A model generated the notes under the pieces. It saw nothing but the letters and a program-made list of their open reading frames with translations. It searched no databases and had not been told where the DNA came from. From Dacryopinax spathularia (lineage: Eukaryota; Basidiomycota; Dacrymycetes; Dacrymycetales; Dacrymycetaceae), in assembly GCA_037974965.1 (NCBI GenBank), contig JBBPFI010000004.1:868001-932000 (forward strand): a stretch of DNA of 64,000 nt, read 5' to 3'. How positions within the stretch are numbered: the stretch's first letter is position 1; every line of letters begins with the position of its first letter. Position numbers and translations under genes: made by a program. Positions 3,151 through 63,185 of the stretch are shown here, in pieces.

Positions 3151-3372
3151 ACGTTTTTTTTTGGCATTTTCCTTTGGGTTGTGGGACAAGGGCAATGTAT
3201 TCTAGGCATACAGAATGGAGCAATACGGAATGTACAACATTGTGCTCTTTCACATTCGTCATCATGTAGCCCCGCGACCAGAAATGCGGGGAAGCGCCCG
3301 AACAAAACCAGACACGACCCTGACTTCATCTGCACATCTTCTAGCGTGACCTCAACACCTGAGGTACATGAG

Positions 3373-4361
3373 ATGGAGACCGCCCGCCTACTACATTCCC
3401 TCATCCCCACCTCCCACTACCTCCCAAGCCAAAGATACAACACAACCCTCACCCCAACCCAAGGATTTCACCGCACCCTCACCTTCTCCATCCCCTCCTT
3501 CTCTACCTCCGCACCCACCACTCCCTATCCGCCAACCACCCCGACCAGCCTGCCAGAAGAGACAACAACATGCATCCTCCAAGCACTCCTCTTCCTCCCC
3601 CCCGACATATTCTCCGACCCTTACGAGCTCTCTCAGCGGCAGTCCGATGGCCGACTAGGCGAGTTCAAAGTCTGGGGCGAGGTGGACCTAGAAGGGCCGG
3701 TTATGGCCGTCGATCCTGCCGGGACCGCTTTGCTCCTCTCAGTGGACACCACTACTCCCCCTGACGAGTCTGAACGGCAGGGACTGGGTGTGGGGATGGG
3801 AGGAGGAGTGGATGTGGATGTTCCGCTGCATTTAAGATACCCGAAGCCGATGGACCACCAGCAGGCTGTGGAGATGGGTTGGAAGGGGAGGTTTGAGGTG
3901 CCTTGGCCTGTTGTTTATTGGGCTTGTGGTGCGTTCGCTTCCTTCCTCTCCACTTTCTCTCTCTCCATCTCTTTCTCTTTGTCTGGGGATGCGGGGCTGA
4001 TGAGTTCGTAGAAGGAGCGAGAGAGGAGGAGGAGTTTTCGCCGTTTGATGCTCTGCCGGAGCCGTTTCGTAGTCCGTATGCGAGGAACACCACCTTCCGG
4101 TTCCTGCGTCCAACTTGGGAAGGGGATGATGCGAAGCTCGAGACGGAGGGGGTGGGGTGGCCGGCGATATCCGTCCAGGTCCCCACTGGCGACCTTTCGC
4201 ATCTTCCTATCGTGGAATGGGGCACGAGCCTAACCGTCCTGTTCGCTTTCCTCTATGTTGCCTGGTATGCTTGGAGCGTGCCTTCTTCCTCCCTGAAGGG
4301 AGCGAGCAAGGCAGCTGCGGACGACGCGCCGCGAAAGGGAACGAGGACGAAGAGGGAATGA
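3373..4361 (+). CDS. PBN1: PIG-X/Pbn1, GPI mannosyltransferase I stabilising subunit
   Basis: Two exons (3373-3928, 4012-4361) encode 301 aa. PIG-X/Pbn1 partners the catalytic PIG-M/Gpi14 in the ER and is needed to add the first mannose of the GPI anchor. Diagnostic features are the motif VPLHLRYPKP near residue 150 and the PWPVVYWACE stretch that follows, as in the PIG-X domain. A single C-terminal membrane segment (about TSLTVLFAFLYVAWYAW) is followed by a short Lys/Arg-rich tail facing the cytosol, the usual type I topology. No clear N-terminal signal peptide is visible, which is also the case in several fungal members. The start was chosen as the first ATG in the open frame. It lies tail-to-tail with the Rho GTPase gene, 220 bp apart. 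Confidence 0.85.
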
Positions 4362-21950: not shown

Positions 21951-22799
21951 CGTACCCAAACAAACCAATCAGAACCCATCAGAATCCCTCCAACTCACCA
22001 TGCTCTAACATCCAGGGAAGCACCGGACCCAAAAAGCGGGACCAAATAACCCCCTCCCCCTTGGCGCTGGCAATACCCGGGCGCACGTGCCTCCCCCGCA
22101 TCTGCACAGCCTGGGCGAAGCCAGCGGGTCGGCTACCGTATCAGCCGCCCATGCGGACCCGCACGAAAGAAGGGTTCAGAAGGGCGGGATCTTATCGGCA
22201 GCCAATGGGAGGGCGAGCCGTAGGTGGCTTCTTCTGAGCCGCAGTTGGGTGCGTTTGGGTGGGGTAAGAGCGGTCTGGCGTGGGTGGGGGAAAGACATGG
22301 TTGAAGGATTTCAGCTTGTCCGGGTTTGCGAGCTGTATGCACGCAGGGAGGCTATCGTGCTTTCGGGATGTTAGGCTGAAAGGAGTAATCAACTGATAAT
22401 GAAGCTGTATTTGTCCGTTATTGGTGCGCCGAACCCCAACGTGTGCCCCTACCCAAATCCACGGGCGCGTATCTCGCCCTTAGGAGTCAGCGGGATTGCG
22501 CGTTCAGTCCGTCTCCGCACTCGGTCAGCCGCTGCGGGCTGGGCGTACCTGCTCTTTCCTCTCTTTCTCTTTCTCTCTTACCATCATCACCCATCGTCGA
22601 CGTCGCCTGTGCGCGGGTTGGGCTGCGCGAGGCGTACGTGCGTCCGTGGATTAGGGGTTATCAGCTGAAGGGCGTCATCCTCCTCCACTTCTGATTCTCG
22701 CGCTCCACACCTCGCCTTCGACACCTTGCTCGTCGCCGGCCCCCTCATTCTTCATCTACCCTCGCACGCCCGCGACGACAAGGAACGACGATATCGACG
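21951..22799. other. Flank between the satellite and the adenylate kinase gene
   Basis: No gene is supported. The last 250 bp (CT-rich around 22555-22590, CGTCGTCG-rich near 22590-22800) look like the promoter and leader of the adenylate kinase gene. Confidence 0.5.
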
Positions 22800-23837
22800 A
22801 TGCTCGCCCTTCGCCCGTCTCCCGTCCCCTCCCTCGGGCGCGCATTCTCCACCAACCCCCAAGCTCGCAAGGCTACTCCGCATCTATTCGACGTAACAGG
22901 CACCGCTACCTACCCTCCCTCTCACTCCCCCTCATCGCACTCTCACTCCCCATCACACCCCGCGTCGACCTCGACCTCCGCCCATGCCCATCCGCATGGC
23001 GTCCCCCACCCCCTCAGACTAGTGATGTTCGGCAAGCCCGGCTCCGGAAAGGGCACCCTCTCGACCCGCCTAACCTCCAAATACCTCATCAACTTCATCT
23101 CCACGGGCGACAGCCTCCGCCGGCATATCGCCCGCCGCACACCCTTAGGCAAGCGCGCAGAGACGCTAGTGGCAGAAGGGAAGTTCTTGCCGGATGATGT
23201 TATGTTGCAAGTCGTCACTTCCGAGCTCGAGGCTCTTCCTCCTCCTTCCTCCCCCGGTCTGGCCGCTGCTGCACCGGGCTCGTCGCCAGCTGCAGCGGGG
23301 CAAGCGGGCCAGAGCTGGATACTGGACGGGTTCCCGCGCACTGTGCCTCAAGCTAGGATGTTGGACGCCTACCTTTCCCGTCTTGCCCCGCCTCAGCCAC
23401 TCACTCTGGTGGTGCATCTCGACGTACCCGACTCTGTAATCCTCAGCCGGATCCAGGACAGATGGGTCCACTTACCCTCCGGCCGAGTCTATAACCTCGC
23501 TTACAACCCTCCCCGCGTTCCAGGGCGGGACGACCTGACAGGCGAGCCGCTCCAAAAGAGGCCGGATGATACGCCCGAAGTATTTAAGAAACGCCTGGAG
23601 GTGTTCGAGAGGGAGACGGCCCCGTTACTGAGGTACTACAAGAGTGTGGAGGGGGGCGTGAGGGTTGTGACGTTGAGGGGGGAGACGAGTGACGAGATTT
23701 GGCCGGGGTTGGAGAGGGAGGTTGGGGGGTTTGATCTGCCGTTGAGGGGGGAGAAGGGGGGTGTGAGGGTCGAGGAGGAGTTTATTAGGCGGGCGGAGGA
23801 GGAGAGGGGGAAGGAGGGGGAGGCGGTGAGAGCGTGA
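22800..23837 (+). CDS. ADK2: Mitochondrial adenylate kinase (AK3/Adk2-like)
   Basis: Intronless, 345 aa. It transfers phosphate between AMP and a nucleoside triphosphate (GTP or ITP for the AK3/Adk2 type) and probably acts in the mitochondrial matrix: the N terminus (LALRPSPVPSLGRAFSTNP) has an Arg/Ser-rich presequence character. Motifs are the P-loop FGKPGSGKGT, the AMP-site stretch STGDSLRRHI, WILDGFPRT and the LID with DRWVHLPSGRVYN and a DDLTGEPLQKRPDD loop. The LID lacks the four zinc-type cysteines, as usual in eukaryotic enzymes. Odd points are a His/Ser/Pro-rich insert at residues 40-70, an Ala/Gly/Pro insert before WILDGF, and a very charged Glu/Gly/Arg C-terminal tail. It is convergent with the UMP/CMP kinase gene. 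Confidence 0.92.
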   Translation: MLALRPSPVPSLGRAFSTNPQARKATPHLFDVTGTATYPPSHSPSSHSHSPSHPASTSTSAHAHPHGVPHPLRLVMFGKPGSGKGTLSTRLTSKYLINFISTGDSLRRHIARRTPLGKRAETLVAEGKFLPDDVMLQVVTSELEALPPPSSPGLAAAAPGSSPAAAGQAGQSWILDGFPRTVPQARMLDAYLSRLAPPQPLTLVVHLDVPDSVILSRIQDRWVHLPSGRVYNLAYNPPRVPGRDDLTGEPLQKRPDDTPEVFKKRLEVFERETAPLLRYYKSVEGGVRVVTLRGETSDEIWPGLEREVGGFDLPLRGEKGGVRVEEEFIRRAEEERGKEGEAVRA

Positions 23838-26738: not shown

Positions 26739-26864
26739 CTGAGGGTGCAATGGGTATCGTATTGGTTGGTATCCTACAACGAGATATGCTCCCCACCTTC
26801 TTCTCCTCTCTTGTCTCTCCCTTCGCTCCAGGTACTGGATGTCCTCCCCGGAAGCCTCATCGGC

Positions 26865-29581
26865 TCATACCTTGAGCGCGGCGATCCACCGAGCCTCGCT
26901 CGCGCTGAGCCGCCATGCAATACCGCTCGACGTGTAGAACTCGTCCACGCTTTCTTCCTGTTCATGTACACACATTTTGTCAGACTCCCGTAACTTGTTG
27001 TAATGCATACGCCGTGAAAGGCATACACACGGAGAAACAGAAAGAGAAGCGACGAAGAAAAGGGAAAGTGGGAATGGAGGCAAGAGAATAGAGAGAGGCA
27101 GAGAAGTAAAAGGGGGCGCACCTTGTCCAAGTTCAAAATCGTCGCAATCTGCTGCAACCTCTGCAGCTTCTCCCTCGCGTCGCCAAACGACGTCTGCGCC
27201 GCCAAATACCCCGAGATACTCCTCACATCCCTATCGAACCTTATCGCCCCCAGCTCCGTAAACTTCATCCCCAGCACCAACTTCTCCCACGGGCGGACGA
27301 TCACGTCGATCGCGAGTGTCCAGAACTGGCGGAAGTTGGACTCGGTGAACGAGTCTTTGAACCCTTCTAGGATCGATTCCCAGGACTTGATGAACCGTTT
27401 TTTGACCACATCTTGATACTCTGCCGTGGCGTAGGAATCTTCGTCCAGCATATAACTGACGTCTTTATATATGTCCGTCATCAGTGCCCTTAAGCGAGGA
27501 CGGACGAGCTGGTTGAAGAGCTGTTCGATGCCGGACTTGAGGATGGAGCGGAATTTGGGCACGAGGGAGAGGAGGGAGGAGATCCGAGAGCGGGCGGGCT
27601 CGATCTCCCGCAGGAGGAAGTTTTGGGGTATGAGGGGAGATTCGAGGAGATCGTCGGTGAGGCGCTCCATGTGCGAGGCGGAGACGTCTAGGTCGTTGAG
27701 GCATATCTAACGCCTCTTCAGTCCTTCGGACAAAATATGTAGGTGAAATGGGGGGACTTACGATGAAGTTCGTCCGACTCTCCCGCTCCACCCGCTCCTT
27801 TTCTTTGCCTGCCGGCAGACTCTGCACCCCTCTATAAACGTCCTCCAGTTTCCTCCTCAACACACCCGCATAATCCCGCTCCATCAATTCCTCCACAAGC
27901 TTGCACATCCTCTCCATCGTCGGCAGTGACGAACACGTGATCAGCCGATGCAGAACCAGACGGAGGATGTAGAACGCGTCGTCTGGCGTTGTGGTCTGCG
28001 GGGAGGGCTGGGTGTTGTCGACGCTTGCTAGTCTGTGCGCTCTGTCGATGACGGAGCGGAGGTACCACAGTTCTAGGGGCTCGTAGTACCTCTTGAGCAG
28101 GCTGGCCATAGCGGCTTGGCAGCCAGAATCGTCGATCATCTCCAGTATCGATGTCGTCTGATCTTCCTCTGAGTCGTCCTCCGAAGGTACCTGAGTAGCA
28201 TTGGCTGCGGCAGCTCCTTCAACATCACCGTTCTCGTCGGAGGATGGCGGTTTCCGCTTGAGTCGATCGAGCAGGAAACGCCGGAACAGGCCCCATCGGC
28301 TGGCCATGCCCGCTATTTCTGTAAGGACCTTATCCATTTCGCGTGGATCGGGACCTTCTTCTTCCACGCCATTCAGCGGCTTTTTATTCCCAGAGTTTGT
28401 CGGTTTGAGAGCTGCAAAACTCGCATCTCTCGCCTCTGTGAGCTATAGACCCTTCATCAGTTCATCATATGCAGACAGAGAGGAAATGGTAGAGCACCTT
28501 CCGCTTCATCTGCCGCTCGTCTTCCCACCCGTCGAACAGTATCCGTATGACCTTGTCCGCTTCTTCCAATAGCTTCACAACGACGGGTACCATCTTCCCC
28601 GGTCCGTAGTATTTCTCCACTACGGGCTGATGCTGGTCCACGATCAGAGCGATGGACTCGAACAGTGCCGTAAGCATGGAGATATAATACATCGGCGAGC
28701 TCGCTATTCCCATGTCAGCTCAGCAAATCAAGGCCACTTCCGTAATTGCGCGAGACGTACTCTTCCCCGAAATAGGTTTCCGGCCACGAACAAGTTCGAC
28801 CACAAAGTCCGAATATGCTTGCAGGCCCTCCTGCTCCCACCCGATTGCGGGGAAGAGCTTGAAGAACCTGCTTACTGCCACTGAATCCCGTTTCTGAGCA
28901 GCGATCGAAAAGTGTCGCTGGAACGTGTGTAGGAGGGTCTTGCGCGCTTCTTCGAGTGTCTGTGACGGGGGGAGGGGGAGGTCGGCCGTTGGCTGTTTGG
29001 GTGTATGGGTCAGAAGGGGGACGAAGAGGATGCCCACGGGGGAGGGGAGAGGGACGTACGACGGTCTTCTCGGCGAAGGGACCTTCGATAACTTCTTTCG
29101 GTATGGACATTGCGCGTGCGCAGTGACGCGTGGCGGACTCCCAGTCTTGGGCGTCGATGTCCGAGTGTATCGCAGCAAGTGAGGACTGTCAGCCGTAAGC
29201 TTCGCGCAGTACTCTGAGAAAGTACCAGCACACCTTGAGCTCCATGATCAACCCCACTCTATCCGCGGCCTCCCTCACCCGCCTCATCTCCTCATCCAAT
29301 GCAGACACCTTGCCCCCGACAACCTCCGCCGTCCGAGCCGTAACGCTCACTTTCGCAACCAGCGCATCCGCATCCTCCTCCAGCTGAGCAACACCATCGA
29401 GCAGTCCCCTTAGCCTAGTCAGGGAGTTGGCAATTGGTTGCCGGTCCGAGAGCAGCTTGGAGAGTGAGAGGAAGATGGCCGATTCGTCCGCCTGGACAGC
29501 AGAGAGAGCGCTGACGATTGAAGGCAACGTCGTCAGAGTCCGCGGACTTGGCCGGCCTTCTCCCTCTTTCTCAGCGTCCAT
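26865..29581 (-). CDS. COG4: Conserved oligomeric Golgi complex subunit 4 (COG4)
   Basis: Seven exons (29234-29581, 29060-29185, 28761-28992, 28498-28703, 27762-28442, 27122-27706, 26865-26957) give 756 aa. COG4 belongs to lobe A of the COG tether and binds the SNARE regulator Sly1/Syntaxin-5 for retrograde traffic at the Golgi. Recognised stretches are the N-terminal coiled coil, SRFFKLFPAIGWEQEGLQAY, IALIVDQHQPVVEKYYGPGK, LLKRYYEPLELWYLRSVIDR, CLNDLDVSA, and the C-terminal SSGIAWRLSASEARWI. These follow the human and yeast order. The protein ends shortly after this last motif, as in fungi. The last intron (164 nt) is the longest of the gene. The start could be extended 67 codons upstream, but the extra residues lack family character. 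Confidence 0.92.
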
Positions 29582-36065: not shown

Positions 36066-38046
36066 ATGCTCGCTCGGTTCGCACTCCTTACAACTAAGAG
36101 GCTACCGAGCATATACCCCTCATATCGTCGAATTTGGAACAGCGCGAGGAGAATGGCAAGCACCAGCACCAGCAACCCCCCGCCAGCAATAACGATCCCA
36201 CCAAACCACACCCTCCACACCGAGTCGTCCACCCATATCCTCCTCGGGCCACAAGATGCCTTCCTCAACCCCGCACAACAATTCAATAGGGATTTGAGCG
36301 TCGCTGTTATTAGGACGTGGAGCGAGATGGTAGATGAGGAGAAGAGGGAGAGGTGGGCGGGGAAGAGGAAGAGGAGGGAGGAGGCGGGGAAGGATAAGGG
36401 GAGGAAGAAGAGGAAGGTCGACGGGGACGAGGACGTCGCTTCTGCTTCTGTGGCTGAGGAACCGAGCGACTCTGCTGATCAGCCCGAATCGGCAGGTGCT
36501 GCCGGCGAGACGGAGGAAGCTGGAGCGAATTCTGCTGAGAAGCCGGACGGGCAAATCTACAGGCCGTACAAGTTCACGATGCTCGAAGCGTTCGCCGCTA
36601 CCGGACTCCGGAGTATCCGGTATGCGAAAGAACTCCCGCTGCTCAAGTATGTCGTCGCGAACGATCTGAGCGCAGCGGCATGCGAGGCAGTGAGGCGGAA
36701 TGCGGAGATCAACGGGCTGGAAGTGGGCACTTCTGGGCTCAAGCTCGGTGCAGGAGGCAAGGACAAGGCCGATCAGAGCAAGACGGAAGAAAGCAAGCCC
36801 GAAGATGCACACCCTGGACCGAGCACGGAGAACTCTGTTTCTGCGGCAGAAAAGAAACCGCACCCCCTCATCCGCGTCCAGCAAGGCGACGCCCGCCTCG
36901 CGCTCTACACCCACACCTCCCTCCCCTCCCGGTACGACGCCATCGACCTCGACCCGTACGGCACGGCCTCCCCCTTCCTCGACGGGGCCGTCCAGTCCCT
37001 CTCCGACGGCGGTCTCCTCCTAATAACCTGCACGGACATGTCCGTCCTCGCCTCGACCAACTACGCCGAGAAATGCTACGCGAACTATGGTGGTCTGCCC
37101 GTGAAAGCAGAGTACTCGCACGAGGCGGCGCTGAGGTTGGTGCTGCATGCCGTGGCGAGCAGCGCGGCGCGGTATGGACGGACCGTGGAGCCGCTTCTGA
37201 GTCTGAGCATGGACTTCTACGTCCGCTTGTTCGTGCGCATTCGGACGAGCCCGCTGGAGGTCAAGCAAGCTGCTAGCAAGACCGGGGTGGTGTATGTCTG
37301 CTCGGGCTGCCAGAGCTGGCGGGTCCAGCCTCTGGGGCGGTATGTGCCCGAAGCGAAAGGGAACCCCTGGAAACTCGCCCAGGCTCCTCCTCCCCACACG
37401 GGCGAAGCGTGCCCGGAGTGCGGCAGTAAATGGCACCTCGCAGGACCGATGTGGATCGCCCCACTCCATTCACCCTCCTTCGTCCAGCGCGTCCTAGCGC
37501 ACGTCAATTCCCCCTCTGCGGAAGAACACTACGGCACGCACCAAAGAATGCGGGGGATGCTCACTGTCGCCTCTCAAGAACTCCCGCACCAGCCGTTCTA
37601 CTTCACTCCGAGCCAGCTGGCGGGGATGTTTCACTGCGTCTGTCCGAGCCTGCAGGACGTCGTTTCTGCGTTGTTGAATGCGGGGCATGAATGTAGTAGG
37701 AGTCACGCGTCTGCGGGGAGCGTCAAGACGAGCGCGAGCAGGGAGGAGGTGTATGATATTTTCCGGAGCTGGATTAAGGGGGGGCACGCGGTGAATATGG
37801 CGAAGGTGAAGGAGGGCTCGCCGGGTATGCAGTTGCTCAGTAAGGAGATCAAGTGCGTGCTCTTTTCCTCCTTTTGGCCTGTAGGATTGTGCTTGGTATT
37901 GGGTGTGTGCTGATGCGAGTGTGTGTCTTTGTAGGAGGGAAGCGGACTTTACGCTCCATCCGGAGTATCATGCCAAGTTTACGGGGATCAAGCTGGTTAG
38001 GTATACGGCGGAGAAGTGGGCGCCCGGGACACGGGCGAAGGCTTGA
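36066..38046 (+). CDS. TRM1: tRNA (guanine26-N2)-dimethyltransferase Trm1
   Basis: Exons 36066-37852 and 37935-38046 give 632 aa. It dimethylates G26 of tRNAs in nucleus and mitochondria. SAM-fold landmarks are TMLEAFAATGLRSIRYAKE, VVANDLSAAACEAV, the catalytic-site DAIDLDPYGTASPFLDGAVQ, then LLLITCTDMSVLA and the Cys-rich finger (CSGCQSW ... CPECGSKWHLAGPMW). The C-terminal domain FHCVCPSLQDVVSALLNAG is typical. Two low-complexity inserts occur: one Lys/Glu-rich basic stretch KRKRREEAGKDKGRKKRKVD (a likely nuclear signal) and one between LEVG and HPLIRVQQGDARL. Two in-frame Met codons, 36066 and 36153, flank an Arg/Tyr-rich presequence, as in yeast TRM1. Confidence 0.95.
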
Positions 38047-39645: not shown

Positions 39646-41855
39646 CTATTGTTTGTGATTTAAGCCTCCGATACAGATGTTCCGTTGCTGATGCCGTGTC
39701 AGTGCGTCGCCTCGTGAGAATCCTTGGCCACTGCGGAACAAAAATTAGACTTTCTGAGACACGCGTGGGAATGATCGGAGAAAAAGAAAAGTACGCACCA
39801 TTCACAGACGAACGGTTTCTGCCGTGTATGTCGGCTTCGCACATGCCGGCCCAGGTCATGATTTCGGACGAATTTCATCTTGCATCCAGGCCAAGTGCAC
39901 GCGAATGGCCGGATATCAAGATGCATCTGCACATGCGACAGAATCGCACTCTTCCGCGGGAATGTCTTGCCGCACATCAGACACTTGAACCGCCTCTGGC
40001 CTGCTGCGCCAGCCCCGCCAAGCTCCGTGTATTTGTCGCTCAGATCAATGTTGAGCAGCGCCTGCTGAGCCTCACGTTCCGCATCAGCCTCATCGTAATC
40101 GCCCGCCTCGCTCGATCCATCATCATCCGACATGTCTATATCGTCCACATCGCTAGCCGGCTGGGAGTAGCTGATACCGCGATTTCGGGGTCGCAATCCA
40201 TGGGGAAGCGGCGGAACAGGCGGCAAATCGCTAGTCTTGATATCGCCTTCCAATCCACCCGTCTTCGAGAATTTGCGACTCCGGACCTTTCTCAGACCAC
40301 GCGTCGACACCTTCCTATCCCCACCACCCAGGCTCGCGGCACTCGTCGGTCGACGCAGCTTCCTCTTTCCAGGCGAAGGCGGGACGGGCATGCCCTGTGC
40401 CACTGGTGGAGGGTAGCTTGGCGGACCATTGGGCAGGCTGATCCCAAATGCGTTATTGTGATAGAAAGCCGCGGCATCCTGACTAGCCAGGAAGTGCTCG
40501 AGCCCTGGTTGAGGATGGCCTTGGAACTGCATGTCGTCCGATGTTGGATCGCCCATCCCGACCGTCCAATGGGGTTCGACGAACTGCGGCATCGGTTGAC
40601 CAAACTGACCGGCTGTGGGAGGTGGAGAGGGGTACATCAGCGCTAGATAGTCCACGTCACTCTCGCTTCCTGGTACAGGATGTTGAAGATAGGGAGAGCC
40701 AGAGTCGTAGCTGGCTGGACTATGTCGCCCATTGGCCGTGGGGAACGGTATGCCAATAGAAGTCGGATCATGCTGCTGACCTTGGTGGGAAGGGAAGATA
40801 TTGATAGGCGGAACGGGTGCAGAGGGCGGCGCAGACGCGCCAGAGTCCGGGTCGTCAAACTGTGCCAAGCTGAATGCGTGTGGATTCGGATTATGCGCAT
40901 GTACCGGGGAGTGCGACATATGCGCTGCAGCGAACGCGGAAGCGAGGTCATGGTTCACGTCTCCGCCTCCATGTGCGTGGTGCGGAACGGTGATGGGCGG
41001 AGCGGTTACGAGGGGGGATGAATGGGGGTATGTGGGGAAGATCTGGCCTATCTGAGCAGACGCCGGCGTTATCGGCGGCGAGGTCGTAAATGCGCTGTCA
41101 GCAGGACTGGGCAGTGAAGAGGAGGACGAGTAGTACTTCAGGTCCTGTCGAGAATCGTTCGGGTGATGCTGTGGTGGGGGCATGTGTTGCTGCTGCTGCG
41201 GTTGCTGTTGCTGCTGCTGAGGTACTTGTTGCTGCTGGGGTACAGCAGCAGCGTAGCGCAGATTACGGAACGTGTCATACTTGCTCGCTCGGGCAAGATC
41301 CAGAGGTGGAGGTACGCGCTTCTCCCGACCGAGGGGCGAACCTGACCTATCCCGCGAGTTGGCTACGGCAGCAAGGACAGAAGCAGGCACGGCAAGACCA
41401 AGCTCGGAGTAGTCGGCCATCAAATCTGGGTCTACCGCACCACGGTAGGCCATCATCTGTTTGTGTGGTGATCCGTCCGCATTCACGACGACGTTGGGTA
41501 TCGCTGGGTATTGTGACATCTGTTGTTGGTGATGCATGCCGTTGACCATCTGGCCCTTCTCGCTTGCGTGCTTTGTCGGTGACAGCTGGCTAAGGATGTT
41601 GCCTGCCTGGCGAGAGAGTTCCATGAGGTTTGCACGGAGTGTGTCGTCCCGAGGCAGGCCCTGGGCGGGCATAGCACTGGCCGTGACGGTCGTGATGCCG
41701 AAAGCCGGCGGGGAGGGGCGCAGAGCGGCCGCTGTTGACGGCGTGACGGAGCGGATGCGTTGCACGGCTGCGGGAGTGGAAGAGCGGCTGCTTTGGGTGC
41801 CGCCGGCGACCGAGGGAGGGGGAGGTAACGGTTGCGGTTGAGTTTGGGTCTGCAT
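39646..41855 (-). CDS. C2H2 zinc-finger transcription factor
   Basis: Exons 39799-41855 and 39646-39730 give 713 aa. A nuclear DNA-binding factor, with the DNA-binding part at the extreme C terminus. Three fingers are visible: FKCLMCGKTFPRKSAILSH plus VQMH; FACTWPGCKMKFVRNHDLGRH plus SRH read as a second C2H2; and, after the intron, CGQGFSRGDALTRHQQRNIC, a C2HC-type finger. That last form (RGDALTRH then Cys) resembles the third finger of calcineurin-responsive Crz1-type fungal factors. The long N-terminal part is disordered, with Gln runs around residues 205-225, many SP/TP sites and Met/Pro/His-rich stretches. A basic patch GKRKLRRPTSA may be a nuclear signal. Target genes cannot be inferred. 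Confidence 0.88.
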
Positions 41856-44731
41856 CCTCGGAAGACTGACGGATGATGGGATATAGGGTTTCGCAAGGGC
41901 GGTGAAAAGGGGGAAAGCAGCCGGAGCCGGCGGAGGATTAGCGATTTGGAGGGGATGGAGGGGAAGAAACGGGTATGACGCGAGTGGACGAGCTAATGGG
42001 TCGATGATACGTGCACGAGGACCTCAGAGCCGTACCACCGAACTGGGCTGTGGAGACGTGCTGTCACGACTGGAACCGCTCTAGACTTGCGTAAGCTTCG
42101 ATGGTCCAAGAGCGTCGAGGTGCACGGGACTCTGCACGGCGGAAGCGAGCCGAGGCGGAGGTCGATGTATGCGCAGGAACTGAGATAGCGCCCAGGACAG
42201 ACCAATCAGACCACGGACTTCCGGATCGAGCAGGACCAGGGGGGTCGAAACCCGAAGAGGCGATGATGCGTAATGGGTTTGTGCGAGACCTTCGATGTAT
42301 GCGTGCGTGACCCAAGCAGGACCCACCCAAAACGGGACTGATGGTGGATGTATAGGGCGAGGGTTCTGTGTCAGTGATTAGCGTCGGTTGGAGCGAGAAG
42401 CATGGATAAGGCTGGGCTCTCTGGAAGAAGTGCCCGAGACCAGACACTCACCACAGCGGGAATTAGGACGAGACCACTGCCTGGACCCACTGCTCACAAG
42501 TAACGAGCTCTTCGACTTCGCTCGCGTGGTGTCGGCGATGCCCAAGGCTCGATGATGTTATGCGTGTGCTCTGAGCAGCGTATATGCGCGCGAGTCGATC
42601 TGATCTTGCCCCAGTTTGGGTGATACGATTGATTCTGGCCGCTCTAGGGTGTCTTGTCTTGGTGCTTGGTCGGCGCCTGCGTGTGGTGTCTGAGGACGAC
42701 CAGCGGGGCGTGGGTGTATTAGGGAAGACGGCTAGGGGGAGAGACAAGTGAAGGGTATTGGATAGCAGAGAGAAGCAAGACGGCCGGGGCGGGGCGGCGA
42801 AGGAGGCTGGCAAGATGGCTAGCAAGGGTATGAAGCGGTACGGGTTTTGAGACAGCGCGCCAACTGAGTCAAGAACCACCTCGTCGGCCCGCTTCTTTCT
42901 GCTTCGCTCGTTCTTCTCGTCCTTGCGGCCACGGTGCGTGTGGTAGAAAGAGGAAGAGAGGAGGAGAGAAGAGGAGGAGAGTGCGCCGGTAGATTAGGGA
43001 TTGTTGTGCACCAACCGAGATGATGGTAGCGCGTAGATGTTGAACGACGCCGTCAGAGAGTCGCCTGAGCTTTGCAGGGCCTGTCCCCTCTCGCCAAAGA
43101 GGACTAGCTCGAGTGCGCCCACAGAGGAGGTAAGCGGGTGGTCCGTGCTCGGCGTAGATAGACGACTGAGCAGCGCACTATGGATGATCTGCACGTTGGG
43201 CGGGCCACATCTGTTGAACGCCGACCCGCGCCCTTTACACCCTCCGCCGGTCCCTGATGGGAGGGGTGCAGGGGTGGGATATATGGATCCCTGGTAACGG
43301 TGGCCTCTCGTATGCGTGTGCTGAGAGCCGACGAGGGAGAGGACGCGCCCGATGGTCGAGCAGTACGGGATCGAGCCGTTAGCTGGGCGGGAGGATGAGA
43401 CCGAGACCACGTTAGGAGGGGAGCAGTAGCGCAGGGGGAAGGGGAGATAGCGCGTCCCTCGGCTGGGTCGATGACACCCCCCGCTTGGCTCACCCAACGT
43501 CACCGCATACAACGAGCAACAGCAAACAGCGCGCGTAGGCGTAGGCGCGTCTGACCATCCCATCCCCCTTCAGCAGTACTCCCCCAAAGACGCGCCAATC
43601 GAACCTTGTTGAGATCGACCTTCTTCTCCATTCGGTCTTCTCTTCGCATCTTCGGTCCCTTCTGGCCTTCTCGCTCGGGGCGACGAACCCTGTCAACCCC
43701 TCGACCGCCGCGGCCAATCAACCCACGGAGCAAGTTCGCTTCCGTCTTAATTGGCCGGCCGCCCTTCTGATCCCGCTTCCGGTCCTTCGCATCTTCTCCC
43801 GCCGTCATCACAGCCCCGATCCATCCTCCATCGATCCCATCACCCAACCTCCATCAACTCCATCAGCGCATCCTCCCATCCGTGCCGTAAAGAAGCCACG
43901 ACAGATCCCGAAGACTCGCGTGCGCTGCCGCACTTGCCGACGGGCCAAGCCGGTCTGGCCCCACGAGGACCGACCCGTCTTGCCCGTCTCGTGACCTCTT
44001 CCTGGGCCAAGCGCCCGGGTTCCGCCCATGACGAGAGCTGACAATCAATAATTTTTGCTGCCGTTAGGGTTTCACACTCCGCCGACGCCGCTACTTATGA
44101 GACAACGTGCAAGCCACGCGAGCCGATTGCTGCCGAGCCGCGGAAGCGATGTCTGCTGCGAGGGCCGACCCTGGTCTGTGCAGGGAAGAGGCGAGGACTG
44201 ATGTAGTTGTCGCAAGTACCAGGGCTTCTGGGCATGATGCTGCTCCATCATACTCATTCCTAATCCACATGATGCCCAGCTTCGCTATTGAGCGCATTGT
44301 CGCAGGGTGGCATCATAGTCGGGTGGCTCCAACGAGAGAGACAACGGACTATGCAACCGACACAATTCCTAGGATGCACGATGCATGATTGATGATGCGC
44401 ACTGGGAATCGAGGGTGATAGATAGTAAGAATCGTTTCATCATGACTAGGGAAAAAAGGGTAAACAGGAAGATACGCTAGGTAGGTTGGTAGGTAAGACG
44501 TAGGATAGGGACAGGGGCGATCAAAGACCGCTCGTGCCCCGCTAGGTCGGGTTTTACATTACATCACATCGAGTCCGCGTCACTTTCGAGCAAGCGCTGT
44601 GCATCGTAGACACCCAGCGCCCGACACAAGCTCTCATTCAGCATTTCTCCGCTCATCGGCTCCGTTAGCGCTCGTGGACCTGTCACGCACGCCTAGTGCT
44701 AGACTGGCTCGTACGACATGGGCACGGACGC
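41856..44731. other. 2.9 kb gene-free region upstream of the zinc-finger gene
   Basis: No reading frame is convincing. The longest (189 codons, minus, 42994-43563) is low in family character and overlaps others. A long regulatory or leader region for the zinc-finger gene is likely, which is common for fungal transcription factors. The stretch 44040-44700 holds the downstream flank of SCAMP. Confidence 0.45.
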
Positions 44732-49736: not shown

Positions 49737-51352
49737 CTAATTAACGTGTCCCCGTACACCTACCAATCCCGTAATCCAAGCTGTCGGCGTCATTCCGAGA
49801 GCTTTCCAGAGTATGAAGAAGCAGACTATGTAGGGGAATGTCAGCCAGTTCGATTGGCGCCGATGTTTGGACTTACTTAGCGTTTCGAGGCACCAAAACC
49901 AGTGCTTCATCAGGAGGTACTTAGGCGCGCCGCCGAGCTTCATTACACCTAGTTTCACGATACCCCAATCCAGAGCTAAGTCTTCCCTCCAAGTCATGTG
50001 GTCGATCCTCCCCGCGACCTTGGATGCGCGACGTCTACCTTGCCAGAGCGTCCAGCTCATCCCAAAATCGTTCCATACTTTGTGTCCCTCTTCGCTCAGT
50101 TGAAGCTTCTGTTGATTCCAGTAGAAGCGGTCGACACAACCATCGCGAAGGGTGATGGCCATCTTCCTGATCAGATGCTCTTTCTTTTCGGGCGCACTTG
50201 CTTTCCAGGCTTGGATGGGTGCACCCCACAGGCGTTCGTCCGAGGCGATTTCCGCTTCACTTGATCGTGCTGTATTACGAAGACGCTAAATGGATGGTCA
50301 GCCTACTGCCAAGGCGAGGTTGAAGAGTATGCGTACCCCAAGCCTATTATGCCTTACCGCCTCCATGATGGCGGGTTGCATCCAGATTTCCCAATCCTTG
50401 CCGTCTACGCAAGCTTCAGCCGCAAATCTCCAGAATCTGGGATCGTCCAGAGTATAACGCGCCAATTCGTCTCGCATACTGTAGTCGCCGGAATGGATGG
50501 GTGGTAAGCCTGGGGTACTGTAGTCGCCCGGATCGATGGGTGGTAAACCAGGAGTCAGGTAGTCGTCGGGATCGATGGGTGGTGAGCCAGCAATACTGTA
50601 GTCGCCGATATCGACAAGTGGTAAGCCAGGAGTGTTTGCCTTGGCTGTCGTCGGGCCCGTGATGTGGACGGCGTCGTCGTCTTGCTCCGCTTCACCCATG
50701 ACGCGTCCCGCCAGGCCGTTATCCACGCACTCCTCTTCTGCTCGTTCCCCTCCGGCAACCTCCATGGCAGATGCAGCTTCGTCGTGAGTGCCTTGCTCAA
50801 GAAATGTCCACCGCTATCGTTTCTTCCTGAGACCGGTACACACGCTGATACGCTCATCGGTGACGCAGGCGCGCCGTCATCGCCTTCGCCTTCTTGGGCG
50901 GAAATCTGCACCTCCCCATCGTCGTTATCTCGAGTGTTGGCCGGTACCCTTTGGCTTGTCGTCGGTGGGGCAGTTGCGCGGTTCTCCTCCGTCTCGGCAC
51001 TGGGGATGCGGTCGTCTTCATCACTGTCGTCAGGACTGGCCGTCTTCATGAATTCACTTGGTAAGGGTTCTTCGCGTCGCTCGCTCGCCGGCATGTGCGA
51101 CATTGTAGTGACACTGGTTGGTATGATGTCTGGCTCCTCCGCGTCGGCATTGTGTGAGAGAGCATGGTCGTCAGCCGGACTCGCTTTGCTCGTCTGCGAT
51201 TGTGGAAGGGCCGGAGCGGACGTTTCCTTCGCCATGATGTTGAGTTCGAACGACGAGTCCGATACGGCGCTCGGGGTACGTTGAGGAAGTGGGTTCAGGG
51301 CCAGAACGGCCAGGGTGGCCGTCGCCGATCCCGGTTTGTTCCTGCGCGGCAT
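49737..51352 (-). CDS. Lineage-specific protein with 13-residue repeats (structure uncertain)
   Basis: The downstream exons are firm: 50337 upward, 49877-50285 and 49737-49825, with introns 50286-50336 and 49826-49876, all in one frame. Upstream, a 345-codon Ser/Asp/Glu/Pro-rich frame must be joined by an intron around 50780-50850. A shorter model starting at 50765 (308 aa) also works. In the middle are four 13-residue repeats of the form PGLPPIDPGDYST. The C-terminal third is Trp-rich and ordered (WGAPIQAWKASAPEKK, DRFYWNQQKLQLSEEG, VWNDFGMSWTLWQGRR) and ends in a hydrophobic stretch (CFFILWKALGMTPTAWI). I do not recognise the family. It resembles the many orphan genes of agaricomycetes. Confidence 0.45.
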
Positions 51353-56246: not shown

Positions 56247-56406
56247 GATAATAACGTGTGAGGTGATGCCCGTGGCGGAAAGGCTGATGATTGGTATCTG
56301 TAACTTAGGGCGCAGATGAGGCCACGTTACACAGGTCCCGAGCGCCTATTTAGTCCACGTGAACGCGCGGTACTAGTCTCTGGAACGCATTGAACCAAGT
56401 TGTCTC

Positions 56407-56922
56407 TTGCCATCACCTGCCACCTCGCCTTCTCCGTTCGCCTGGATCCTCCAAGAACAGATATGCCCTCCTCTCGCAGTCGTCGAGTTCCTGCTTGTAC
56501 GTCGTTATCCCGATTTGGCGCCCTGTGGCCTCTCGTCGGAGGTATGCTATAGTCTCGCAGATGTGGCTCTTCTGCGCAAACCCGGTCCGGACTTGAAACG
56601 CTTTGATCCGGACGTCCACTATCAAGCCTGGTACTACGAGGACGGTCTTTTCTCGACTTGGGACTTGCACCGCACTTACAGAAGGCTGGCTTATTATCTC
56701 ACTCTGGACCACTCGTTTCAGTTCACTGGCATCGTGGACGATTGGAGCATGTGGGCGGATTGGGTGCGTTGCTATCCCTGTACGACCGCCTTTCACTCAC
56801 ATGGGCGACACCCGAGAAAGGCGATTCCCCATCGCTCTAAAGCCTACTGGTCTCGCTTCCTGCACAATCCCAGCAACCTGCACTGGATCATCGTCTATAT
56901 GCGCGCCAAGCGTTTCCAGTAG
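56407..56922 (+). CDS. Hypothetical protein, about 170 aa (start uncertain)
   Basis: An open frame of 171 codons whose first in-frame ATG lies late, so a short upstream exon is likely; the left boundary is the start of the open frame, not a proven start codon. Trp/Tyr-rich ordered residues support coding: DVHYQAWYYEDGLFSTWDLH, YYLTLDHSFQFTGIVDDWSM and YWSRFLHNPSNLHWIIVYMR. No family recognised. It is divergent from the 841-aa gene. Confidence 0.42.
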   Translation: MPSPATSPSPFAWILQEQICPPLAVVEFLLVRRYPDLAPCGLSSEVCYSLADVALLRKPGPDLKRFDPDVHYQAWYYEDGLFSTWDLHRTYRRLAYYLTLDHSFQFTGIVDDWSMWADWVRCYPCTTAFHSHGRHPRKAIPHRSKAYWSRFLHNPSNLHWIIVYMRAKRFQ

Positions 56923-57227: not shown

Positions 57228-59645
57228 ATGGCTGAATTTCCCCTCACCGACCTGCCAACGTGGAAGAAAGTCGTTATACTGAGCTGCTTGATCGAATGTC
57301 TCCAGAAGTATCCTACTCCAATCTGCGAACCCCAGCCTTCGGACAAGCGCCCTGGTCCAAGTGAGCTTCAATTTCTGAAGGGGATGGCGCTGCTCCTTTG
57401 CTACGGATATGAGGATGATGACCTACACCGTATTCCTGCTGTGATGATGGCGGCGTGCCCCGAGGACGAAAGCTCGGTGCGGGGAGCCACCGGTGCGGTG
57501 ACATCTGATAAAACTCGTCGTCCTCATATGTCCGCCGGCGGCATCCACACTTTAAAGGAATTCATCACCTCTTCGGACGTGAAAATCCCATCGGACCCAC
57601 GCCTCCCCAGAGGAGATGTTGTTGTCATCGCGAGGAATCCTGCGTTTGGTTCAACCGCTGGGGTTGATCCAGGCGCAGAGGGGGGGATTGAGTGGTCGGT
57701 CGAGCAGGTTCCCATGAACCTCAGTCAAGCGAGTGCTCTAGAGGTACAACTAGGGGCCGAGTACGTCTAGCTCGCTGTCTCTATCGGTCGTCTAGGCTGA
57801 CGGCGTTTCAGCCCAGAAGCGTGCCGCGCAAGTTCATTTCGGACATATGAATCTAATCTCTTTGCCTTATTAAAGGGCGGAAGGGCAGACCAGGCCAACG
57901 GCACTCGTCCCAGAACCTCGTTCGTCTGACCTTGTGTTGTAACTTTCTTCTCTTTCTGATCCTGTTATATAGACCCATCCTGCAATATTCCGTCAGGAAC
58001 TGCATAGGGAAGATTCTGCAGCGTTGTTCGACGTGCGACCGTCCTTTCAGGAAGACTCTGCCCCAGCTGTTGATGAACTGGTACCTTCTCGAAGAGCCCC
58101 GCGACAATACTTCCTCCCTGATCAAAGAGGTCGAGGTCAACGAAGCGATACCTGGGATTGTTCGCTGGTTGCAAGCGGGCAATACTCCCGTCGAAGGCAT
58201 TGAAGTGAACTGGGCGCTGCTCGTATCTGGCCCTACCTCACGAACACCGATATTCACATACGAGAACGCCCGAGTGTGGGCGGCCCTTTTGGCCTTTCTG
58301 CTGTCGACAATCAGATCCACTGCGGAACAACTTCAGCGTCACGATCTCGCCAAATCCGAGACCCAGCGGCTCAGCAAGGAGGACTTCAAGAGTAAATTTC
58401 AGCTCTTAACCGCACTACTCGAGGTTCTAGCGAACTTCTTCCACGGCAGCCCTCCTGATGAAAATGCTTCAAAATGGAGTCTACCTACTATTCTTACTGT
58501 GTTGCTCGGTCGGGAAGAGGTGGGGCTGTACGCGCACCTCTGTAAGTCACCCTTCTTGCCTCAAGCGGTCAAAATACTCACCGTTCTCGTAGGGACCCAC
58601 GCATACCCTGCCTTTAGAGGAGAGGGGCCCGGGCACAGCAAAGACAGTGGGGGCCAGCCACCTGCATTTGCTGAGGGCGGGGAAGATGCGATCCGTGACT
58701 CTTCGACTAGTGCGCTGGAGGACGAGCATAGTCTCTACGTCGAGGCGAAAATGAGCGATTCGTCTTTGCCGTACATGTCCAACCTCGTTACGAGCGCCAT
58801 AAATAACCTCAGCGGCTTTTGGTTCGCGGCGCACGAGACGCACACATACTATATGGGAGATCGGAACACACCGGCTCTGTCCCCGACCTACTTCGAAATT
58901 CGCGGGACCAATATGCCCAAGCTGACTTTGACGGACGACGAGCTCACCAAAATTCGCCGTTGGGTTGAAGACGTCGCCATCAGTAAGAAAGAAGTAAACG
59001 AACGACCCAAATATCATCAGTTTAGGCGACTGGTCACAAGCGGCGAAGGCGTCCACTGCTCCTTTCATGCAGAGGCGCTTCTTATGGCGGCCATCCGACA
59101 GGCTTCGAAGGAAGGCAACGAGGAGTGTACAGGACGTTGTGTGCACTACGATGCTCGGTGTGCCTTGTACACAGCACTCCGGAGGCATCCTCGCCTGTGG
59201 AGTGCGCTTGCAGTACGACCCTCCTTGATTCCCTCCATGCTTCCTTCTAACCACGAGTTAGACCGGGCCATGGCTCACTGTTTGTGCTAAGAAGGCATGC
59301 TCACACTGCCATTTTACGGCACTTCACGGAGATGTTCAGGTGCTCAATACGGACGGCACTCATGGGTTACCATTCAAGTCTATTCTTTTCGGATTAAGTG
59401 ACGATCTCCAAGAGTTCTTTGCCTCTTTGCTTCTTCAGACGTTGAGAAAAAGTCTGAATGATGGAGCTCAGACGCAACAAAGCAGCCCAAATCGCTCGAT
59501 TTACGATGGACGTCCCGCACCAGCCGTCTCCCGAAATACCGCCGACATCTTCGCCATCGATACGGGCGGTGGGGACGACGATGTGCCCGATTCAAGCGAC
59601 CAATGTCTCGTCGATTCTGACCCGATGAGTGATAGTGACTTCTGA
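57228..59645 (+). CDS. Deaminase-superfamily-like protein A, 737 aa
   Basis: Exons 57228-57760, 57812-57919, 57973-58541, 58593-59212 and 59262-59645 sum to 738 codons. The C-terminal third has the deaminase zinc signature split by an intron: FHAEALLM (H562, E564) and, after the junction, AKKACSHC (C623, C626). Between lie CTGRCVHYDARCALYTALR. An N-terminal domain around residue 130 has the strand pattern GDVVVIARNPAF. A helical middle part (VWAALLAFLLSTI; LLTALLEVLANFF; GLYAHL) is shared with gene B at 60907-62427. The tail is acidic and disordered (GGGDDDVPDSSDQ). HAE plus CxxC would coordinate zinc, with Glu as proton shuttle. The nearest known group I can name is the OTT_1508-like deaminase family, reported to be expanded in basidiomycetes; substrate unknown, possibly nucleic acid or nucleotide. 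Confidence 0.7.
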
Positions 59646-60071
59646 GGGTTCGTGCTATCAGTTTACGAAAGGGATTAGCAGGACAAACGGGTCTGGTTGA
59701 TGAACGTAGCTACTAATGTAGACATGCCCAAACAACAATGGACTGACGTCCCAACATCCCAATACACGTTCATCCTGACTTCCCTCGTTGACTAACATCC
59801 CAACGTCGCAGCACCCCAAAAGATGTTCATCCTAACCTCCCTCATGGCTGACATCCCAACGGCCTTACCTCCTTACCTCCATACATCCGTGCACCGGCTC
59901 AAGTCTGTGGATCGCGTCCTAGACCAGCGGAGAGTTCCTGCCGGTCGCGTTGGGTGCTACCCAGGATCAACCCCTTTCTCCAAGGTCCTGACCTTCAAGC
60001 ATTCTCTGCCAATGCTGCCAACAGTCGCATCTTGAATCGGCTCCACCACCGTGTAGAGATATTAAGTGAAG

Positions 60072-60398
60072 AATACCCTCGATCCCCGGGGTGCTACTCC
60101 GGCTCGACACCCTCGCCCCTGTCCTAATCGCCATGTATAGGGATGGAAAGAGGGAGAGTATACCCTCGATCCTCGGGGTGCTACCCCGGCTCGACACCCT
60201 CGCCGGTCCTAATCGCCATGTATAGGGATGGAAAGAGGGAGAGTATACCCTCGATCCCCGGGGTGCTACCCCGGCTCGACACCGTCGCCGGTCCTAATCG
60301 CCATGTATAGGGATGGAAAGAGGGAGAGTATACCCTCGATCCCCGGGGTGCTACCCCGGCTCGGCACCCTCGCCGGTCCTAATCGTCATGTATATTAA
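60072..60398. repeat. 84-bp minisatellite, four copies
   Basis: Four near-identical units begin with TACCCTCGATCCC at about 60073, 60161, 60245 and 60329; the first is 88 bp, the others 84 bp. Each has a CCCCGGGGTGCTAC core, GGCTCGACACCCTCGCC, and CGCCATGTATAGGGATGG. The copies differ at only a few positions, so this array is far younger than the satellite at 16.5-22 kb. Confidence 0.93.
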
Positions 60399-60464
60399 AG
60401 AGAGCCGGCCTACCTGGGATGGATACGCCGTCATCAAAGGCCCGGTACTTCCTTGGGTTCCCAA

Positions 60465-60556
60465 CATGCACACATCCCAACATGCACACATCCCAACCAA
60501 CATCCCCACATCCCAACATCCCAACTTCCCAACATCCACACATCCCAACATCGTAA
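60465..60556. repeat. CATCCCAACA-type simple repeat
   Basis: A run of CATCCCAAC/CACACATCCCAA units, about 9-14 bp long, lies on the plus strand. The same words recur singly at 59750-59850 and 60605-60630, suggesting slippage-driven spread. Confidence 0.85.
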
Positions 60557-60906
60557 CAACCATACGTGAGTATCTAGCAGGGGCTACCTGGGATCGCGGC
60601 CCAGCTTCAACATCCCAACATCCCAGTATCCTGGCCTCCGCACTGCATGCAGAGGGGGCGCGTTCTGGGATCGCCCCCTCCATATCAATTCGAGGGTGCC
60701 TAACTGAGATCGACGCCGCAACATCAGACTGGCATTAATGTGCCAACAAAGCACGAGCGCCGGGAACCAATCGATCAACAACAAGGTAGTATTACAACAT
60801 AATCCGATGATGCAGTGAGGATCCCCAATGGTGTACAACATGATCCGCAAAACTTGGGAAACCAGTGGGTATAGGACGCACAGACGGTATCAGGATGGAG
60901 ATACCC

Positions 60907-62427
60907 TCAACAGAGGGCTTTGTTTGGACGTAAGCGGGCTGCGGATTCGAAGCAGGTGAGCAAGAGGGCCCGGATCAACGAATCCTCTTGAGCCTGGTCG
61001 AGGCCGAAAGGCCAACATGGCACATATTCTCCTAGTCCTTCCAGAGAGGATGGCCGATCGGCCGGGGGAATTGATACCCATTTGCATATGGCGCAGGGAC
61101 GCTTGGAGGAGCCCTGCATTGAACCGTAAACTCGCTGGGTAACGTTCTATTCACATGTCAGTGTCTGTATCGTTGCTGTGCATCGCCGACTTACGGATAA
61201 CGGTCGCAGCCCGAATCTTTGCCTCAAAGAATTGTAAACGGCACATCGTTTGTCTTCGTGGATACAGTCCGCGCTGCATGTACGGTACTGGGCTGTTAAA
61301 CTGCGCACGGCGAGTATGACCGTTTCGGCGTGAATGGAGCTGGCGACGACCTCCGCTCCGTAGCGATGCAGGTGAAGGAGGAGATCGCTGAGAAGGGATG
61401 AATGTATACCGGCCCCTTTGGCGATAACCTGCTGCAGCCCCGTGAAGACCGCCGAGGTGAATTGTCGGGGCGCCACACGGCGCATTTGCCCTCGCAGGAC
61501 GATTGCAGAGAGGGGACGTAGTTTCAGCTCGACCGGAAGATCTCTGTACTGGCTAGCGAGTGTCCTTCCCGCCGAGAGATAGAAGACCAGGCGATAGATG
61601 TGCTGTAGAATGGGGTTGGGTCGAGGGTCCATCGCTGGATCGCCATTCTCTACTACTGAACGGTCAGTGTCTGGAAGGGGCATTTGCGGATGAGCACTCA
61701 CTGAAATAAAGTTGGACGTGCGCATCTAGGCCGATCATTCTGCTAGTCAGAAGTGTCTGCAGCACGTCTACTCTCTTGTCACTGTGAGGCGTAGTGATGT
61801 GGTAGACTAGACCCCAAAGCACTTCTAATCGTGCGAAGAGGCTCTTGGCGGTCCGCTGAAGGAGTTTCTGGGGGCCTTCTTGAGATGGCAAAGGCGGGCG
61901 CCCGCTGGTCCCGGTTGGGGGCCATGTAGGAAGTAGGCCATGACATGCCAGACAAACGTCTTGCTTCGCTGGATAGTACACACCTGGGGTGCTATACAGC
62001 CCCAGGAGGAGTACATCGCAGTAGATCTCCTCAAGAAGTGATGCTAAGAGCCGCGCCCAGTAGATGTAAGTATCTGGACCGAACACTGCGACCTTTGACC
62101 CCCTTATATGCGTTTGGCTCTGCCGCATGCCATTCCAGAGATGCCGCTGAGCTTTCTGTTGGACATACCGCCAGGCGCCTTCCGGTAGCTCGACCAGGAA
62201 TGCATCGAGTACCGAAGAATTCACATCCTCCCCCGGTATCCAAGAACGTAGTACGCCGGGCACAGGTGCGATGCAGGTGTGTTGAAGATCACACACTTGT
62301 CGGCAGAGATCGCTGATGTGGCTTCCAATGGTTAATTGGGCGAATCGCCTAATCAGCATGAGCGCACCACAAACGGAACTACAAGAACAACGACTAACCA
62401 TATTGCGTCCTCATTCAAGCGATACAT
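60907..62427 (-). CDS. Deaminase-superfamily-like protein B, 458 aa (paralogue of A)
   Basis: Exons 62399-62427, 61702-62348, 61195-61655 and 60907-61146 sum to 459 codons. The zinc signature is complete: SSIHAETVIL (H334, E336) and SSKRPCAICKWVS (C397, C400), a textbook PCxxC. Between them lies CSADCIHEDKRCAVYNSLR, which matches CTGRCVHYDARCALYTALR of protein A. The helical domains also align: YWARLLASLLEEI with VWAALLAFLLSTI, and LFARLEVLW ... GLDAHVQLYF with LLTALLEVLA ... GLYAHL. Two introns fall at equivalent places in A and B (after GLxAH and between the HAE and CxxC exons). B lacks the N-terminal domain and acidic tail of A. The first coding exon is just 29 nt, with a GTTAGT donor. Confidence 0.72.
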
Positions 62428-62699
62428 GGGAGAGGACAAGGAGGCTGAATACAAGTAGTTAAGGGCAGCTTGACAGAAGCTTGCGCGGTCCCGAGAGGTA
62501 CATAATCTCATTCTCCGTCCCGTCAGCGCGGCTTAGACTGGAGGGACGGGTCCGACTTACTGAGCACCCACATCATCGTCGCATTTGCTTGAACCCTTCT
62601 CCGACTCTGCTACCGCTTCCTCCATCGACCATGCTACAAGGGCCGGACTCCGTGAGGTGTGGGCCAACCCGCCCTGTCCCTCCACTAAGGTACTAAAGG
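62428..62699. other. Short intergenic gap
   Basis: 270 bp with no gene or repeat seen. Confidence 0.5.
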
Positions 62700-63185
62700 T
62701 TAGGCTGACGATTGCTTGGCAGGATAGATGAGCTCACCAGGTTCACACAATGTGGCATGCATCACCTCCAGGCCGCTCTCCTGGCCCTTGACGCCGGACG
62801 TGACATGAACCGATATCAATGCCAGCCGCGAGTCGGGCAAGACGGCCTGAACCGTCGCAAGGCTGTATGGGTCACAGGTCGTTGGATCGGCCACGCGCAG
62901 GCATGTGAAGGCGTCCAATGAGCTGGGCTCGTACTTCGGTATCATGGTAGTGTACGGTGTTGTTTCAAGGTATGGCGTGTCATATTGACGAGGAGCAGGA
63001 GCAGGGGTAGGGCGTGCCGAAGACCTCTCGAGATATGCCAGTACTCTGGTAAGGAGTGCTACAGCTTCTGCCGTGGCCAATTCTGCAAAAGAGTTGCGAT
63101 GCTTGGGAAGAGTCATTCCTTGCAGGTGGTCGTTGGAAGCTTGCCTGCGCGCAAGTGTACGGTAGTAACCGGGGCGGTGTGTCAT
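62700..63185 (-). CDS. Hypothetical protein, about 161 aa
   Basis: An open frame with ATG at about 63185. A helical segment (SFAELATAEAVALLTRVLAY) precedes a Pro-rich linker and an ordered, beta-like C terminus (ATVQAVLPDSRLALISVHVT, then GLEVMHATLCEPGELIYPAK). No family recognised. It may be one exon of a larger gene upstream, since 63186-63494 has no convincing separate gene. Low certainty. Confidence 0.3.
   Translation of the reverse strand: MTHRPGYYRTLARRQASNDHLQGMTLPKHRNSFAELATAEAVALLTRVLAYLERSSARPTPAPAPRQYDTPYLETTPYTTMIPKYEPSSLDAFTCLRVADPTTCDPYSLATVQAVLPDSRLALISVHVTSGVKGQESGLEVMHATLCEPGELIYPAKQSSA

What the first reader, a model, noticed from the sequence alone, without database searches (positions are those of the whole stretch)
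57228..62427. Convergent pair of paralogous deaminase-superfamily-like genes
Both proteins have HAE and, after an intron at the matching place, a CxxC (AKKACSHC in A; KRPCAIC in B), the zinc signature of the cytidine/nucleic-acid deaminase fold. Helical parts upstream and two intron positions are shared, so they are true paralogues. The spliced leng­ths are exact codon multiples. Fungal members of the OTT_1508-like deaminases are, to my knowledge, uncharacterised; a mutator, RNA-editing or nucleotide-salvage role is open. This is the best candidate in the window for an undescribed enzyme system.
Basis: partly seen in the sequence, partly recalled or inferred. Interest (0 to 1): 0.8.

Follow-up and report, generated by a model that had tools for sequence, protein, structure and literature searches.

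The report
Paired fungal OTT_1508-like deaminase genes
Two facing, anciently duplicated fungal genes each encode a long helical protein ending in what looks like a divergent OTT_1508-type deaminase, the family whose Neurospora members edit RNA during antiviral defence, so these are probably RNA- or nucleotide-modifying enzymes of a known family rather than a new system.

Summary
Gene A (+, 57228-59645, 737 aa, 5 exons) and gene B (-) are convergent paralogues. B is longer than reported: 5' exons extend it to about 63116 (654 aa, 6 exons). All four A introns are matched by four B introns in order and phase (2,2,1,0), not two. BLASTP A/B gives E about 1e-6, centred on the HAE block.

Pfam PF14441 is the only deaminase profile either domain draws, below its curated cut-off: A E=0.008 (1.8e-4 with the Cys-rich insert removed), B 0.039 with it removed; 13 motif-preserving shuffles give none. 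Membership is likely but divergent. AlphaFold2 with two sequences was uninformative (pLDDT 33), so the fold is untested.

"Uncharacterised" is out of date. Neurospora OLD proteins are OTT_1508-like A-to-I RNA editors that correct a stop codon in the adjacent zinc-finger gene zao during virus infection (PMC12754623). No zao-like gene adjoins A or B within the window. Best reading: active zinc deaminases of the OLD kind; family likely, substrate inferred.

The parts
57228..57760 (+). Gene A exon 1 (aa 1-177), N-terminal part
   Evidence: open frame from ATG to GTACGT donor, phase 2; Pfam finds no family outside the deaminase part of A
57812..57919 (+). Gene A exon 2 (36 aa)
   Evidence: 51-nt intron before (CTGAC branch, TTTCAG) and 53-nt intron after (TATATAG); phases 2 and 2
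57973..58541 (+). Gene A exon 3 (190 aa)
   Evidence: aligns over its whole length to B exon 62348-61702, 5/300 shuffles reach the score
58593..59212 (+). Gene A exon 4, first half of deaminase domain
   Evidence: HAE at 59066-59074; z=12.5 against the B exon
59126..59161 (+). A: CTGRCVHYDARC, Cys-rich insert, candidate second zinc knuckle
   Evidence: C-x3-C-x-H-x4-C occurs only here and in B among 87,856 residues of window ORFs; removing the insert raises the PF14441 score 16.5 to 21.8 bits
59262..59645 (+). Gene A exon 5: AKKACSHC zinc motif (59286-59309), GTHG, acidic tail, stop
62738..63116 (-).
   Evidence: open frame, GTGAGC donor at 62737
62561..62684 (-).
   Evidence: ends phase 2 like A exon 1..AWSMEE..VGA|Q compares with A ..EWSVEQ..LGA|D
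62399..62512 (-). Gene B exon 3 (38 aa; counterpart of A exon 2, 36 aa)
   Evidence: phases 2 and 2 as in A; acceptor of the preceding intron is GAG, so the start is uncertain
61702..62348 (-). Gene B exon 4
   Evidence: counterpart of A exon 3
61195..61655 (-). Gene B exon 5: HAE (61332-61324) and CSADCIHEDKRC (61278-61243)
   Evidence: acceptor ambiguous by 3 or 6 nt
60907..61146 (-). Gene B exon 6: GSSKRPCAIC zinc motif (61113-61084) and stop
60073..60552 (.). Intergenic tandem repeats between the two 3' ends (85-bp x 3.8; TCCCAACA x 12)
   Evidence: Tandem Repeats Finder

Best explanation
A and B are anciently duplicated, divergent fungal OTT_1508-like (PF14441-type) zinc-dependent deaminases, each with roughly 500 residues of family-unassigned, apparently helix-rich sequence before the catalytic domain. 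Shown: two long paralogous gene models with four matching introns; HAE and CxxC in the order of the deaminase zinc site; a weak but specific match to PF14441; a shared Cys-rich block between the motifs. Inferred: the His of HAE and the two Cys of CxxC hold the catalytic zinc and the Glu activates water; the C-x3-C-x-H-x4-C insert binds a second, structural zinc; the N-terminal part recognises the substrate or partners. Most likely substrate: adenosine in mRNA hairpin loops, as for Neurospora OLD, so that the pair edits a small set of transcripts, possibly in response to virus or stress. The target need not be a neighbouring zao gene, because none is seen in the window.
For: PF14441 is the only deaminase family hit: A domain E=0.0081, 16.5 bits; without the insert 1.8e-4, 21.8 bits; B without the insert 0.039, 14.4 bits. 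Nine shuffles keeping HAE and KKACSHC, and four shortened ones, give no PF14441 hit. A composed family-like peptide with HAE..YIGVSKLSCFLC..GSHGKLYP scores 84 bits, so PF14441 rewards the G-x-SK-x2-C-x2-C and HG motifs that B (GSSKRPCAIC) and A (AKKACSHC, GTHG) partly keep. Paralogy: E about 1e-6, intron phases 2,2,1,0 in both. Function by family: OLD proteins, HxE..CxxC, A-to-I editing of UAG in zao (PMC12754623).
Against: All PF14441 scores lie below the gathering cut-off of 27 bits, and B has no hit without the in-silico deletion. The fold is untested: pLDDT 33. No relative was found in viral, prokaryote, plasmid, phage or PDB sequence collections. No zao-like C2H2 gene or TAG-split zinc-finger frame lies near. 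Nothing here distinguishes RNA from DNA or free nucleotides as substrate, or adenosine from cytidine.
Confidence: 0.45

Rival explanations
1. The proteins are OTT_1508-like deaminases but not RNA adenosine editors: they act on cytidine in DNA or RNA, or on free nucleotides, for example as mutators of transposons or in salvage.
For: The HAE/CxxC core is shared by cytidine, adenosine and nucleotide deaminases (established knowledge). Extra structural zinc ligands also occur in dCMP deaminases (own knowledge). B has the classical PCxxC.
Against: The only characterised fungal relatives of this profile family found here edit adenosine in mRNA; the long N-terminal part is unlike small salvage enzymes (own knowledge).
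Confidence: 0.27
2. They are a true OLD-ZAO antiviral module whose zinc-finger partner lies just outside the window or was missed.
For: Same profile family; the OLD-ZAO system is reported in one basidiomycete and is duplicated in Neurospora. The window ends only about 0.9 kb beyond the B start.
Against: Both genes point at each other, and no C2H2 gene or TAG-split finger frame lies in the 15 kb upstream of A. The nearest C2H2 gene (39702-42023, -) is over 15 kb away and uninterrupted.
Confidence: 0.1
3. They descend from deaminases but have lost catalysis (regulatory or pseudo-enzymes), or one of the pair has.
For: Strong divergence from PF14441; B has a weaker match and one non-standard splice acceptor.
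Against: HAE and CxxC are intact in both, despite only about 22% identity between the paralogues; reading frames are open over 737 and 654 codons.
Confidence: 0.12
4. They are not deaminases: zinc-binding helical proteins in which HAE and CxxC occur by coincidence.
For: Sub-threshold profile scores and no usable structure model.
Against: PF14441 is the profile drawn by both; 13 motif-preserving shuffles draw none; the motif order and the intron between the motifs are conserved.
Confidence: 0.06

Closest known systems
Pfam PF14441 OTT_1508-like deaminase family
   Same: HxE then K-x2-C-x2-C; A keeps a GTHG like the HG motif downstream; best and only deaminase profile hit
   Different: scores below the cut-off; a Cys-rich insert of about 30 residues between HAE and CxxC in both proteins
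Neurospora OLD-1/OLD-2 with ZAO (Honda et al. 2025, reviewed in PMC12754623)
   Same: fungal OTT_1508-like deaminases with HxE..CxxC, duplicated
   Different: no adjacent zao-like zinc-finger gene with a premature TAG in the window; here the two deaminase genes face each other; sequences could not be compared directly
dCMP deaminases with a structural zinc site (own knowledge)
   Same: extra Cys/His zinc ligands besides the catalytic zinc
   Different: no profile similarity found; much larger proteins here
Tad2/Tad3-Ame1 fungal mRNA editors (PMC12754623)
   Same: HxE..CxxC chemistry and fungal setting
   Different: no Tad-type deaminase family hit for A or B

Membership tests
PF14441 OTT_1508-like deaminase | profile score at or above the curated cut-off (27 bits) | tested here: not met
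   A 16.5 bits as it stands, 21.8 without the insert; B none as it stands, 14.4 without the insert
PF14441 OTT_1508-like deaminase | specific similarity beyond the HAE and CxxC motifs | tested here: met
   0 of 9 and 0 of 4 motif-preserving shuffles hit PF14441; A E=0.008 to 1.8e-4
PF14441 OTT_1508-like deaminase | G-x-SK-x2-C-x2-C before the second zinc helix | tested here: inconclusive
   B has GSSKRPCAIC, A only AKKACSHC; that PF14441 rewards the motif is shown with a composed peptide
Deaminase superfamily | HxE followed by CxxC as zinc site | tested here: met
   present in order in both, HAE to first Cys 61 and 63 residues
Deaminase superfamily | five-stranded sheet with H, C, C brought together | tested here: inconclusive
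   AlphaFold2 pLDDT 33 with two sequences
OLD-ZAO module | adjacent C2H2 zinc-finger gene with a premature, editable TAG | tested here: not met
   no C2H2 frame near A or B and no TAG-split finger ORF in the window; sequence beyond 64000 not available
OLD-ZAO module | A-to-I RNA editing activity, virus-induced expression | not testable with these tools
   needs RNA-seq and assays

The most novel reading that the evidence does not exclude
A and B define a distinct fungal subfamily of OTT_1508-like deaminases with a second zinc knuckle between the two catalytic motifs, acting as zao-independent RNA editors. They would be candidates for the unidentified enzyme behind reported mRNA editing in basidiomycetes.
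Probability: 0.12. Interest if true: 0.7.

Novelty: new member of a known kind. Interest (0 to 1): 0.38.

Why it matters
A 2020 review lists the enzyme for mRNA editing in basidiomycetes as unknown (PMC7306014, Table 1), and a Coprinopsis study did not list OTT_1508-like proteins among its candidate editors in the passages read here (PMC10532568). If these genes are active OLD-type enzymes, they give testable candidates and extend an antiviral editing family to divergent members that standard Pfam annotation would miss. The organism itself was not identified here.

Tried and rejected
Relatives: viral contigs with A, with A+B and with a composed family consensus, genome contigs twice, plasmids and phages by tblastn, PDB by sequence, PADLOC, NCBIfam and PHROGs: no relative. 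No fungal collection was available and no genome is held for the window. Family search across bacteria by handle was not possible. The Orientia prototype OTT_1508 was left unfetched, as a predicted effector of a human pathogen. AlphaFold2: spliced proteins were not submitted because the tool asks for letter-for-letter translations; read-through forms carrying 16-17 intron-derived residues were used instead, and both models were unusable, so no fold search was run. Two-intron alternatives for A between 57700 and 58000 were enumerated; the GTACGT/TTTCAG and GTTCGT/TATATAG pair was kept for its consensus sites and fit to B. The Phage_gene29 hit of B (E about 0.1-0.2) and the BssB_TutG hit were rejected as chance. 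The family consensus peptides were composed from recollection of the motif and are not database sequences.

Full report
Observation. The region was re-read and gene models rebuilt. Gene A runs on the + strand: 57228-57760, 57812-57919, 57973-58541, 58593-59212, 59262-59645 (737 aa plus stop). Its introns are 51, 53, 51 and 49 nt long in phases 2, 2, 1, 0, all with YAG acceptors. Gene B runs on the - strand. Upstream on the same strand is a further open frame with consensus splice sites. Joining it gives 63116-62738, 62684-62561, 62512-62399, 62348-61702, 61655-61195, 61146-60907: 654 aa, introns 53, 48, 50, 46 and 48 nt in phases 1, 2, 2, 1, 0. The last four phases equal those of A, and the small exon is 36 aa in A and 38 in B. 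Caveats: the 62560-62513 intron uses a GAG acceptor; the intron starting at 61701 can end at any of three AGs; the 5' exons of B were chosen partly by likeness to A, so only the last three phase matches were independent; codon bias is weak and supports 4/5 A and 4/6 B exons.

Paralogy. BLASTP of A against B gives E about 1e-6 over 48 residues, with weaker collinear pieces upstream. In the six-frame window each is the other's only significant match. By exon, the HAE exon scores z=12.5 (0/300 shuffles), exon 3 of A against its counterpart is reached by 5/300, and the others are not significant alone. Global identity is about 22%. The genes are convergent, their stops 1.26 kb apart, with an 85-bp minisatellite and a TCCCAACA array between them.

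What the proteins are. PF14441 (OTT_1508-like deaminase) is the only deaminase profile hit. Whole A gives E=0.18 and the A domain E=0.0081 with 16.5 bits, against a cut-off of 27; B gives none. Between HAE and CxxC both carry C-x3-C-[VI]-H-x-D-x-R-C-A; the pattern C-x3-C-x-H-x4-C is found only in A and B among 87,856 residues of window ORFs. Removing that block in silico raises A to 21.8 bits (E=1.8e-4) and brings B to 14.4 bits (E=0.039), whereas shuffled sequences keeping the motifs never hit PF14441 (0/9; 0/4 shortened). Deleting residues favours a match, so the B value is supporting evidence only. Composed peptides with the family motif score 71-85 bits, which shows that the profile expects H[AC]E, G-x-SK-x2-C-x2-C and HG. 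B keeps GSSKRPCAIC, and A keeps AKKACSHC and GTHG.

Structure. Two AlphaFold2 jobs on two-row alignments gave pLDDT 33. No solved structure resembles the domain by sequence.

Function. A 2025 review (PMC12754623) describes Neurospora OLD-1 and OLD-2, OTT_1508-like deaminases with an HxE..CxxC centre. They edit UAG to UIG in the neighbouring zinc-finger genes zao-1/2, favour hairpin loops and U at -1, and act in an antiviral response; the system is reported from Eurotiomycetes, Sordariomycetes and one basidiomycete. The zao homologue CHE1 of Fusarium has three C2H2 fingers after the edited stop (PMC11169179). Here no C2H2 frame adjoins A or B. The only credible one (39702-42023, two fingers) is more than 15 kb away and uninterrupted, and no TAG-split finger frame exists in the window. 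A finger split by an intron could have escaped the unspliced pattern scan. By family the best guess is RNA adenosine deamination; the zao circuit is not supported in this window. The Cys-rich block is read as a second zinc site by inference only.

Novelty. A and B are most likely divergent members of a known family. The new points are the ancient pair supported by shared introns, the corrected B gene, and the conserved Cys-rich insert. Whether that insert is common among fungal homologues could not be checked, because no fungal collection was available. The organism was not identified; a basidiomycete is inferred from the short introns only.

Noticed in passing
60073-60394 and 60459-60552: 85-bp tandem repeat (3.8 copies, 95% match) and a TCCCAACA array between the two convergent 3' ends.
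   Followed up: partly
50477-50633: 39-bp repeat (4 copies) that keeps the frame of ORF 50301-50813 (-), giving 13-residue repeats such as GLPPIDPGDYSTP.
   Followed up: no
39702-42023 (-): 774-aa uninterrupted ORF with two C-terminal C2H2 fingers, a probable transcription factor.
   Followed up: partly
3151-4008, 22695-23834, 26777-28442, 36066-37910: Ordinary conserved genes: PIG-X/PBN1, adenylate kinase, COG4, TRM1.
   Followed up: no
56377-56919 (+): ORF just upstream of A with a weak DUF7075 match (E=0.005, below cut-off).
   Followed up: no
53061 (+): A 293-aa frame ends in TAG and continues 68 aa in frame; one of only two such TAG-joined pairs with positive codon scores in the window, without zinc fingers.
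   Followed up: no
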